Assembly (NCBI GenBank): GCA_026398275.1
Contig: JAPLTF010000027.1
Coordinates: forward strand, 16,686 to 80,685
Source of the DNA: Verrucomicrobiota bacterium
GTDB lineage: Bacteria > Verrucomicrobiota > Verrucomicrobiia > Chthoniobacterales > Terrimicrobiaceae
Reading direction: 5' to 3'
DNA: 64,000 nt
The position numbers were made by a program, and so were the translations under genes. Below, in pieces: positions 11,190 through 14,100 of this stretch (position 1 is the first letter of the stretch; each line of letters begins with the position of its first letter). The notes under the pieces are model-generated. The model was not told where the DNA came from, did not search any database, and saw nothing but the letters and a program-made list of their open reading frames with translations.

Positions 11190-14100
11190 TCAGGGCTTGG
11201 CGACGATGTTCACGAGCTTGCCGGGGACGATGATGGCTTTGACGATCGTCACGCCGGCGGTGGCCTCGAGGACTTTTGCGCTGGCGCGGGCGGCGGCTTC
11301 GACCTCCTCGTTTGTGGCACCGACCGCCACGCGGATGCGGTCGCGCACTTTGCCGTTCACCTGGACAGGGATTTCGATTTCGGATTCCACGAGGAGCGAC
11401 TCGTCGTGGACCGGCCACGGCTGAGCGGATGCGGCACCCTCGAAGCCAAGGCGCGACCAGAGCTCCTCGGCGAGGTGCGGGGCGAACGGGCTGAGCAGCG
11501 GGAGCAGGATCCGAAGCGCCTGAACCGGCCGCGGCTTCGCGTTCACAAACTCGTTCGTGCAAACCATCATCTGCGAAATTGCGGTGTTGAACGCGAGCAG
11601 TCCGAGATCGTGAGTCACCTTCTTGATCGTCTCGTGGACGACGCGTGCCTGCGCGGAGGTGAATGGGATATCCGCGAGATCCTGCAAGACGACCCACTCG
11701 CCCTCCTGGTTTTCCTGAAGTCCGAGGCGCCACACGCGTGCGAGGAAGCGATAGACTCCCTCCACGCCTTTTATGCTCCACGGCTTCATCTGCTCAAGGG
11801 GACCCATGAACATCTCGTAGAGCCTCAGTGAATCCGCACCATATTCGGCGATCACGCTGTCGGGTGTGATGACGTTGCCGCGGCTCTTGGACATTTTTTG
11901 TCCATCCGGCCCGAGGATCATTCCCTGGTTCACCAAACGCTGGAAAGGTTCCGGCGTGGAGAGGTGGCCGAGATCGAACAGGACTTTGTGCCAGAAACGG
12001 GCATAGAGAAGGTGCAGCACGGCGTGCTCGGTGCCGCCGACATAGAGATCCACCCCGCCGGGGGTTCCGGCGGATGCCATCCAGTAGTTTTCGGCGTCCG
12101 TCCCGATGAAGCGCGAGGAATTTTCCGGATCACAGAATCTCAGGTAATACCAGCACGAGCCCGCCCACTGCGGCATCGTGTTCGTCTCGCGCTCGGCCTT
12201 GTCCGTGTATTGCACCCACTCGCGGGCCTTGCTGAGCGGGGGTTCCGGCGTTCCGGTGGGTTTGAAGTCGTCCATCTCCGGCTGCACGACCGGAAGTTCC
12301 CCCTCGGAAATCGCGCGGTGCCGTCCGCCCTCCCAGACAATCGGAAACGGCTCCCCCCAATACCGCTGACGGGAAAAGAGCCAGTCCCGCAGTTTGTAGT
12401 TGATCGTGGCGCGGCCCAGACCGTGCTCTTCCAGCCACGCGGAGATCGTGCGCTTGGCTTCGGCGGTCGGCAGACCGTCGAGGAAACCGGAGTTGACCGC
12501 CACTCCCTCGCCGGAGAAGCAGGTGCCCGTGGCCTGGGAATCCACAGGAGGCACGGGCGTCCCGCCCGTGTAGGCTCTGACTCCACTTAACCCAGCCCGG
12601 TGCGGATTGTTGACAATGTATTCCACCAGCTTGGAAAAATGTCCGTCATCGCGAATCAGGCGGTCAAAATATTCCTCCTGCCAAACCGCCCCCTGCCGGT
12701 TCAGCGCCTTATTGATTCCATGCGCAGTGAAGCTTTTCCAACTGTGAAGAGTTTTTGCGAGATCCTGCCCCTCGCGGAGCCTGAAAAGGACATGCACGTG
12801 GTTCGGCATGACCACAAACGCGGAAAGGTCATAGCGGTCTCCGTCGAAATGTTTGAGCGCGCTCTCAACGAGCGAGGCAACAGCCGGGTCATTCAAAAGG
12901 CAGCTTCCCCTGCCGGCATCAAGCGCTTCCTCAATGCGGTTTGAGAAAAGGTCGTGAAATTCCTCCTGCTCTTCTGCCGAGAGCGGTTGTCTGTGGTTTG
13001 TGAGCCAGGCATCGGCTTCCAGATTCCAGCCTTTTACCACGTCTGCAGGAATGCTGTCCGCAAGGCGCCATGTCACGAAGTAATACTTCGAGTCCTGCTC
13101 CCAGTGCGGCAAATTGCGCTCGTGGATTTTGATTTCCTCGAGCTTTTCGAAGAAGGGCGTCAGCGTCTTCACGGGCGGGACGCCCGTGCCCCCTGTGCCC
13201 CCCGTGACCCCTGTGCCCCCTGTGCCCCCTGAAACCACGACCTCCCTCACCGGCAGGCCGAACTGCTGCGCAAAATCAAAATCCCGCTCGTCGTGAGCGG
13301 GCACGGCCATGATCGCGCCGGTTCCGTATCCCATGAGGACATAGTCGGCGATCCACACCGGGAGCGGCTCGCTGTTCACCGGATTGATGGCATGCGCGCC
13401 AGTGAAGACGCCGGTCTTTTCCTTGGCGAGGTCGGTGCGCTCGAGGTCGGACTTTGAACCCACGGTTTTTTGATACGCCTCAACAGCGTCCTTCTGGTCG
13501 GGCGTTGTGATCTGCGGGACGAGCGGGTGCTCCGGAGAAAGCACCATGTAGGTCGCGCCGAAGAGCGTGTCCGGCCGGGTTGTGAAGACGGGAATTTGGA
13601 ATTTGGAATCTGCAATTTGAAATTCCACCAGCGCGCCCTCGCTGCGGCCGATCCAGTTTTTTTGGAGGAGCTTGATCGAGTCCGGCCAGTCGAGACCTTC
13701 GAGCCCGTCGATGAGCCGTTCGGCGAATGCGGTGATCCGCAGCATCCACTGGCGGAGCGGCCGCCGCTCGACCGGGAATCCGCCGACCTCGCTCTTTCCA
13801 TCCACGATCTCCTCGTTCGCCAGAACGGTGCCGAGTTCCGGGCACCAGTTCACCGGCATTTCGGCGACGTAGGCGAGCCGCACGCTGTCCCGCTCGTCGC
13901 CTGTGTAGGTGGAGATCGGCTCGGCTTTGTTTGTCTCAGGATTGAACCACGCGTTATAGAGCTGCAGGAAAATCCATTGCGTCCAGCGGAAGTAGCCAGG
14001 GTCGGTGGTGCCGAATTCACGCTGCCAGTCGTAGCTGAATCCCAGCGCCTGGAGCTGGCTGCGGAATCTTCCGATGTTGCGGGCCGTCGTGACCCGCGGA

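What the first reader, a model, noticed from the sequence alone, without database searches (positions are those of the whole stretch)
12552..13188. A transposase domain lives in frame inside leucyl-tRNA synthetase
A RAYT/Y1-type transposase (HxH in MPNHVHVLF, SWKSFTAHGIN, YIVNNPHRAGL) is read continuously with LeuRS, inside the CP1 editing domain, after AHDERDF and before the GEGVAVNSG block. All other LeuRS motifs are intact, so the chimera is probably a working synthetase that carries a nuclease-like domain. Such a fusion, in which an essential gene drives production of a REP transposase, is unusual. It could affect tRNA editing, provide expression for REP mobility, or be a passive but tolerated insertion. 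I know of no described LeuRS with this arrangement.
Basis: partly seen in the sequence, partly recalled or inferred. Interest (0 to 1): 0.93.

Follow-up and report, generated by a model that had tools for sequence, protein, structure and literature searches.

The report
Transposase domain riding inside LeuRS
The only leucyl-tRNA synthetase gene found in this bacterial genome carries a REP-type transposase with intact catalytic motifs, read in frame inside the enzyme's editing domain; the same arrangement recurs in hundreds of database proteins and in other housekeeping genes, and the transposase is likely made as a guest domain of a working enzyme.

Summary
The 1075-aa LeuRS (11190..14417, -) carries one in-frame REP-associated tyrosine transposase (RAYT) in CP1. 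It is the only leuS found in its genome. Three further RAYTs sit in frame there, in alaS, a DNA methyltransferase and a C-methyltransferase. Of 150 listed relatives of this RAYT in the order, 102 lie in frames of at least 400 aa, against 18 of 150 for RAYTs at large in the phylum. Three protein searches gave 994, 739 and 590 long proteins with such a domain; the listed ones are mostly LeuRS, RecG and CarB. LeuRS guests share one insertion region. HxH and Tyr are intact in 92 of 93 LeuRS guests. A sister genome keeps a single in-frame REP scar there. Best reading: a RAYT lineage living as a non-splicing guest domain of housekeeping proteins, likely translated by the host, mostly inherited with it, and likely active on its dispersed REPs. 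My capped paper searches showed no report of it. Translation, activity and effect on LeuRS are untested.

The parts
11190..14417 (-). leuS, 1075-aa leucyl-tRNA synthetase with in-frame RAYT
   Evidence: only leuS found in the genome
12528..13235 (-). stretch with no counterpart in the insert-free LeuRS of G003 (aa 395-630): linkers, two REPs and RAYT
   Evidence: host alignment stops at aa 394 and resumes at aa 631
12588..13115 (-). RAYT (HUH/Y1) domain, aa 435-610
   Evidence: NF047646 and PF01797
12792..12800 (-). HVH of the HxH motif (MPNHVHVL; H540, H542)
12618..12620 (-). catalytic tyrosine Y600 (YIVNNP)
13170..13188 (-). REP at the element's 5' end in the leuS sense, CACGGGCGTCCCGCCCGTG; 8-bp stem, 3-nt loop
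12552..12570 (+). REP at the element's 3' end, inverted copy of the first
13230..13661 (-). CP1 editing domain part before the insert (PF13603, aa 253-396), with HDERD
12402..12527 (-). CP1 part after the insert (about aa 631-672), with the VNSG block
   Evidence: editing-domain crystals align within model range 260-672

Best explanation
The leuS gene holds a REP-bounded RAYT transposase in frame inside the CP1 editing domain of the only leucyl-tRNA synthetase found in the genome, and the two are likely translated as one protein in which the RAYT is predicted to fold as a separate guest domain on flexible linkers and would still be active. Shown: the unbroken frame, the two inverted REPs, the intact HxH and Tyr, the shared insertion region in LeuRS hosts, the recurrence in other genes, dN/dS well under 1, and an in-frame REP scar in a sister genome. 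Inferred: (1) the unit entered a loop-coding site and only frame-preserving entries survived; (2) host transcription and translation express the RAYT, because in LeuRS and RecG hosts it mostly lacks an ATG just before the domain; (3) most deletions would break an essential gene, so the element persists by descent and is lost mainly through in-frame deletions such as REP-to-REP ones; (4) the RAYT still cuts and joins single-stranded REP DNA and spreads its REPs, which keeps the catalytic residues under selection. No splicing is assumed.
For: Frame and domains. Only leuS found, and only alaS above the cut-off, both RAYT-bearing. Four in-frame RAYTs in the own genome. Clade-specific habit: 102 of 150 listed rows in frames of 400 aa or more for this RAYT group in the order (213 genomes, counted in 75), against 18 of 150 for NF047646 in the phylum (288 genomes, counted in 103). 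Of the 80 best named loci, 44 embedded, 32 stand-alone, 4 cut by a contig end. Long proteins with this domain: 994, 739 and 590; the domain was found in 359 of 359 proteins that were listed. Position: host alignment ends at reference 394-398 in 70 of 88 and resumes at 409-417 in 67 of 90 measurable LeuRS rows of 91; domain start at 411-418 in RecG and 520-531 in CarB, interquartile. H, H and Tyr intact: 92 of 93 LeuRS rows and 101 of 102 rows of other hosts, one a gap; 111 of 116 RecG and 118 of 119 CarB proteins. dN/dS: G000-G001 host 0.098, RAYT 0.143; ValRS G004-G016 host 0.067, RAYT 0.186. Predicted CP1 fold kept: rmsd 1.7 over 179 aligned residues to 4k47 (183 long), within model range 260-672; linkers 397-418 and 618-635 under pLDDT 50. 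REP core copies: G000 42, G001 8, G002 (scar) 9, G003 (no insert) 0. Scar. Mostly vertical: host and RAYT distances r 0.54, Mantel 0 of 1000. Met in the 40 residues before the domain hit: LeuRS 5 of 71, RecG 3 of 92.
Against: No expression, activity or synthetase data. CarB hosts do carry Met in that stretch (61 of 87), so an own start is possible there; the leuS insert region has a GTG with an SD-like motif 41 codons before the domain. Some embedded RAYTs have lost a catalytic residue: G010 LeuRS (Tyr), five of 116 RecG and one of 119 CarB guests. RAYT dN/dS exceeds the host's in most pairs and reaches 0.68-0.69 in two pairs with the decayed G010; RAYT dS is saturated in many pairs. In G020 and G025 the REP occurs only at the element's own ends, so REP spread is not needed for retention. 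No recent jump between host genes was seen: highest RAYT identity between two different identified hosts 0.71. The whole model is weak (pLDDT 69, pTM 0.50).
Confidence: 0.62

Rival explanations
1. Passive, tolerated relic: the RAYT inserted in frame, has no activity now, and is kept only because precise removal is rare.
For: Catalytic loss with the frame kept in G010 LeuRS, five RecG and one CarB guest; patchy presence between sister genomes; G020 and G025 show no dispersed REPs.
Against: H, H and Tyr intact in 92 of 93 LeuRS rows and dN/dS well under 1; REP copies are abundant in G000 and absent from G003, which lacks the insert.
Confidence: 0.2
2. Domesticated domain: the RAYT part serves the host enzyme or cell, for example by acting on tRNA or repair DNA, and is selected for that.
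For: Purifying selection on the RAYT and persistence at one LeuRS position. Many hosts are nucleic-acid enzymes.
Against: Other hosts are CarB, MetH, IspG, FabZ and ClpB; close relatives do without it.
Confidence: 0.12
3. Homing-like element: the LeuRS-type RAYT spreads horizontally into the same site of insert-free alleles.
For: Same region in all measurable families of LeuRS chimera seen; LeuRS guests nearly one group, 93 rows with 4 changes; sister pairs with and without it; G056-G097 insert dS 0.11 against host 0.47.
Against: RAYT closer than host in only 12 of 2410 divergent pairs, 9 of them with the apparently chimeric P0005; the scar in G002 shows loss.
Confidence: 0.15
4. Artefact: assembly chimera, missed frameshift, or pseudogene beside a normal leuS.
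For: The window genome is a 117-contig assembly; one database pair looks like a contig chimera at the insert (P0005/P0006).
Against: Independent sources and a 5.5-Mb contig carry such chimeras; no second leuS; no stop and low dN/dS in host and guest.
Confidence: 0.02

Closest known systems
Free-standing REPtron / RAYT (TnpA_REP), NF047646; PDB 4er8
   Same: HxH-Tyr nuclease, flanked by inverted REPs, REPs dispersed in the genome
   Different: Here the gene has no boundaries of its own: it is an internal stretch of a host gene, usually without a nearby ATG in LeuRS and RecG hosts; its REP lacks the usual GT[AG]G foot
REPs and Rickettsia palindromic elements (RPE) in frame inside ORFs (PMC3733652; outline, sections 15 and 16 and passages seen)
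   Same: REP-type palindromes translated as part of host proteins, including tRNA synthetases
   Different: The inserts described there encode about 20-82 aa and no transposase; here the transposase itself is inside
TnpA-Y1 subclass 2.4 (PMC6006769; passages seen)
   Same: NH[IFV]H, WQ, YIxNNP-like motifs; in-frame REP insertions known, but within the transposase gene
   Different: The reverse nesting. That survey discarded 'a few unexpectedly long proteins' as fusions or annotation errors
Inteins and homing endonucleases (recalled)
   Same: A nuclease inside housekeeping proteins at a conserved site, patchy distribution
   Different: No splicing domain matched in the chimera; vertical descent dominates
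CSB-PGBD3 transposase fusion (PMC2268245, PMC3459987; search listing and start of abstract only)
   Same: A transposase joined to an unrelated host protein and kept
   Different: Made by alternative splicing in primates, not an internal in-frame domain

Membership tests
RAYT / REP-associated tyrosine transposase | curated NCBIfam equivalog NF047646 above cut-off | tested here: met
   81.9 bits, cut-off 80
RAYT / REP-associated tyrosine transposase | HxH motif and catalytic Tyr | tested here: met
   H540, H542, Y600
RAYT / REP-associated tyrosine transposase | gene flanked by inverted REP palindromes | tested here: met
   21-nt perfect inverted repeat, each arm a hairpin
RAYT / REP-associated tyrosine transposase | cognate REPs dispersed in the genome | tested here: met
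   47 copies at up to 2 mismatches, own ends included, control 0; inverted pairs 47-55 bp apart in 10 of 20 stretches fetched
RAYT / REP-associated tyrosine transposase | ssDNA REP cleavage | not testable with these tools
   needs biochemistry
Canonical GTAG-type REPtron | GT[AG]G foot 5' of the REP stem | tested here: not met
   both arms read CAGG[GA]GGCACGGGCG by eye; hence not filed as a GTAG-type REPtron
Canonical GTAG-type REPtron | transposase as a separate gene | tested here: not met
   no stop in the element's leuS frame; no ATG in the insert before that of MPNHVH
Leucyl-tRNA synthetase | TIGR00396 above cut-off, HIGH-type and KMSKS motifs, CP1 | tested here: met
   972.2 bits; HVGH and KMSKS; CP1 match
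Intein | Hint / protein-splicing domain | tested here: not met
   no such match at E 0.001 in Pfam or NCBIfam
IS200/IS605 insertion sequence | IS200-type TnpA with Y---Q motif | tested here: not met
   motif here YIVNNP, as in RAYT subclasses

The most novel reading that the evidence does not exclude
A new way of life for a transposase: 'guest-domain' RAYT elements that have given up promoter, start and stop codon and live as internal domains of housekeeping enzymes (LeuRS, RecG, CarB, AlaRS, ValRS, ClpB), expressed by essential host genes and shielded from deletion, while driving their REP populations from inside. A non-splicing counterpart of the intein.
Probability: 0.45. Interest if true: 0.92.

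Novelty: new variant of a known kind. Interest (0 to 1): 0.85.

Why it matters
RAYTs have been treated as free-standing genes, and one survey discarded unusually long members. Here whole lineages sit in frame in genes that cells can hardly lose. If the reading is right, it explains how a low-copy RAYT persists without being mobile itself, adds a non-splicing route by which nucleases settle in essential proteins, and gives natural examples of a large domain accepted by an editing domain. It is directly testable in cultured carriers such as Roseibacillus persicicus.

Tried and rejected
Special tRNA-editing role: dropped as main reading, because related guests sit in CarB, RecG, ClpB, MetH and others. 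Apparent transfer P0005/P0006 (RAYT 100% identical, hosts about 80%): up to residue 377 they are 36-78% identical by block and from 378 on 98-100%, so a contig chimera is likelier; it stayed in the counts and gives 9 of the 12 exceptions there. 'REP-only inserts' suspected in LeuRS frames of 916-979 aa: upstream frame extension where checked; only G002 shows a clear REP scar. Exact element ends: the REP-to-REP length is 637 bp (1 mod 3) and no relative gives a clean empty site, so boundary and target are unresolved. Insertion position: the first measurement let host matches run into linkers and REPs, and 17 or so rows lacked a side; one search repeated it with the RAYT masked, and there 18 of 88 left ends and 23 of 90 right starts still fall outside the stated range, mostly extensions into the linkers. 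Start-codon test on loci: weak contrast, ATG within 40 codons in 25 of 75 embedded against 26 of 48 'alone'; in the 120 proteins a Met lies near the domain in 18. My label 'alone' means under 80 aa after the domain and wrongly holds at least L128, L059 and L171 (frames cut by a contig end); L059 and L171 look like one locus counted twice. The rows also hold near-copies (243 rows, 233 different). In one search the loop of G010 (which has a RAYT) was missed and scored 'none', and loops of G004, G006, G009 and G012 were not measured; the 6 changes are a rough minimum. Alignment A1 was built mostly from embedded RAYTs, so 102 of 150 leans towards them, on a curated family, is the counterweight but covers another set of genomes, and both lists are truncated by the tool; frames are stop to stop, so some near 400-460 aa may not be host genes. 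Rows were typed by hand into. In one search the pair P0067-P0096 (0.90) had one unlabelled host; one search shows the same host. Host labels for P0001-P0120 were given by me from Pfam accessions (names recalled), some loci by eye. In fold search the RAYT part gave no row of its own among those shown: inconclusive, since LeuRS fills them. Papers: searches showed no report of a RAYT inside a host protein; most listings were capped (20 of 230, 25 of 6,093, 15 of 377, 15 of 18, 12 of 694 shown), searches found no paper, the four papers were judged by title and start of abstract. PMC2817692: one passage seen.

Full report
What is there. The minus-strand frame 14417..11190 reads 1075 aa without a stop. 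It is LeuRS (TIGR00396, 972.2 bits, cut-off 548.4) with a RAYT in the CP1 editing domain (NF047646, 81.9 bits, cut-off 80). Against the insert-free LeuRS of a same-genus genome (G003) the host stops at aa 394 and resumes at aa 631. The leuS frame of the element has no stop; the other two sense frames have 8 each. No other leuS was found in the genome.

It is not alone. The genome has 9 Y1_Tnp matches. Besides leuS, three sit in frame in a host: alaS (the only alaS above the cut-off), a DPPY-type DNA methyltransferase and a C-methyltransferase (the last two named by eye). Of 58 genomes searched, own included, 55 have a LeuRS match; the insert part is matched within LeuRS in G000, G001, G007, G020, G025 and G056, and G010 has a diverged RAYT at the site.

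How common. With the RAYT alignment A1, 102 of 213 genomes of the order have a match at E 1e-25; of 150 listed rows 102 lie in frames of at least 400 aa and 46 in frames under 320. With the curated family NF047646 over 288 genomes of the phylum, 18 of 150 listed rows reach 400 aa. Embedding thus looks like a habit of certain RAYT lineages, not of RAYTs at large. A1 leans towards embedded forms, so the first figure is not an unbiased rate. Of the 80 best named loci, 44 have host-length sequence on both sides, 32 look stand-alone and 4 are cut by a contig end. By record title the 44 include Verrucomicrobiota, Planctomycetota, Lentisphaerae, Kiritimatiellales, Bacteroidota, Chloroflexales and Deltaproteobacteria.

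Hosts. Searching 5.8 billion proteins with only the guest part of three chimeras gave 994 proteins (E 1e-10), 739 (E 1e-8) and 590 (E 1e-10); 120 of each are listed. By Pfam accession, the first list holds 81 LeuRS, 12 HsdR, 3 ValRS and others such as AlaRS, MetH, IspG and R-M or BREX-like enzymes; the second 116 RecG-like and 4 AlaRS; the third 119 CarB and 1 AlaRS. Pfam scans of 17 named loci found host domains around or next to the RAYT, among them ValRS, AlaRS, SNF2, XseA, FabZ, polyA polymerase/CCA, Sua5/TsaC, adenosine deaminase and CarB; in some, host domains matched on one side only. ClpB, ThrRS and RarA were read by eye. A RAYT domain was found in 359 of 359 listed proteins. Some lie on long contigs: P0082 (Roseibacillus persicicus) 5.5 Mb, P0024 4.1 Mb, P0217 4.0 Mb.

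One region per host. With the RAYT masked, the host match of LeuRS chimeras ends at reference residue 394-398 in 70 of 88 rows and resumes at 409-417 in 67 of 90, of 91 rows tried; most others run on into the linkers. The RAYT hit starts at residue 411-418 in RecG and 520-531 in CarB (interquartile, 92 and 87 proteins). In a tree of 243 RAYT rows (233 different) the 93 LeuRS rows need 4 changes (shuffled mean 74.4), the 12 CarB rows are one side of a starred branch, HsdR 17 rows 4, ValRS 12 rows 6, 'alone' 48 rows 24. Over 77 LeuRS chimeras host and guest distances correlate (r 0.54; Mantel 0 of 1000), the guest diverging faster, and the guest is closer than the host in 12 of 2410 divergent pairs, 9 of them with one apparently chimeric contig. 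So LeuRS and CarB each have an old guest lineage, mostly inherited with the host. G056-G097 is an unexplained exception: insert dS 0.11, host dS 0.47.

Gain and loss. In a LeuRS tree of 31 rows, insert columns left out, sister pairs differ: G025 with, G023 without; G020 and G011; G000 and G003; at least 6 changes (with the mis-scored row told under tried and rejected). G002, in the same genus, has GGGAGCACGGGCGGGACGCCTGTGCTCCCT at the site: the outer parts of both REPs joined, in frame, as expected from a deletion between them.

Is the guest active? H, H and Tyr are intact in 92 of 93 LeuRS rows and 101 of 102 rows of other hosts, one being a gap; G010 lost the Tyr. In the two larger lists they are intact in 111 of 116 RecG and 118 of 119 CarB proteins, so catalytic loss with the frame kept does occur. 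dN/dS (Nei-Gojobori) is 0.143 for the guest against 0.098 for LeuRS in G000-G001, and 0.186 against 0.067 in ValRS of G004-G016; other unsaturated LeuRS pairs gave 0.04-0.38 for the guest, and 0.68-0.69 in two pairs with the decayed G010. The REP core occurs 42 times in G000, 8 in G001, 9 in G002 with the scar and 0 in G003 without insert; in G020 and G025 only at the element's own ends, elsewhere in the family 0-3 times. In G000 inverted pairs 47-55 bp apart, the form called REPIN, lie in 10 of 20 stretches fetched, and by eye three REPs lie in frame in a ClpB-like, a histidine-kinase-like and a NuoD-like frame. The REP beside the C-methyltransferase guest gives 26 matches of its own. No recent jump between identified host genes was seen (best identity 0.71). 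So the guest looks functional but hardly mobile as a whole.

Expression. In the leuS insert no ATG precedes that of MPNHVH; a GTG with an SD-like stretch lies 41 codons upstream of the domain. A Met in the 40 residues before the RAYT hit is found in 5 of 71 LeuRS, 3 of 92 RecG, but 61 of 87 CarB chimeras. Host-driven translation is therefore likely for LeuRS and RecG and open for CarB.

Known or new. REPs in frame in ORFs are known, including tRNA synthetases and the verrucomicrobium Opitutus terrae (PMC3733652, sections 15 and 16 read), and REPs in frame within tnpA_REP itself (PMC6006769, passages). The latter survey discarded a few unexpectedly long TnpA-Y1 proteins as fusions or annotation errors. 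None of the nine paper searches (capped listings) showed a RAYT described inside a host protein; database names such as 'leucyl-tRNA synthetase/REP element-mobilizing transposase RayT' exist, apparently as automatic labels. It is a RAYT by profile and motifs, but not a canonical GTAG-type REPtron: the GT[AG]G foot and the separate gene are missing.

Verdict. A real and apparently undescribed variant of the REP/RAYT system: the transposase as guest domain of housekeeping enzymes. Shown: anatomy, recurrence, shared position, conservation, scar. Inferred: joint translation, activity, shelter from loss. A passive relic is the main rival.

Noticed in passing
window 42665-42683: A further copy of the leuS element's REP (2 mismatches); its gene context was not examined.
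   Followed up: no
window 13189-13234: Short GGCACAGGG-like tandem expansion (protein SGGTGGTGVTGGTGGTG) just outside the 5' REP; the corresponding stretch is shorter in G001.
   Followed up: no
L055 (G002:C330), minus strand: Two RAYT copies, the same in protein by eye, in tandem in one 717-aa frame with repeated REP peptides between them.
   Followed up: partly
L063 (G034), CarB frame: Besides the RAYT, a REP-like in-frame insert elsewhere in the same CarB (peptide SDSNTGFQPVPSSDLPGRNQQAG...GKMPELP), read by eye.
   Followed up: no
L220, L213, L216: REPs in frame in a ClpB-like, a histidine-kinase-like and a NuoD-like frame of the window's genome (read by eye).
   Followed up: partly
L030 and L125 (G056, G097): LeuRS insert has lower dS (0.11) than the host gene (0.47): possible gene conversion or transfer of the insert.
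   Followed up: no
L064 (G010), LeuRS: RAYT at the same LeuRS site that kept HxH but lost the catalytic Tyr while the frame stayed open.
   Followed up: yes
window 10872-11117 and 14435-15043: Neighbours of leuS: an acyl carrier protein and an RdgB/HAM1-like gene, named by eye only.
   Followed up: no
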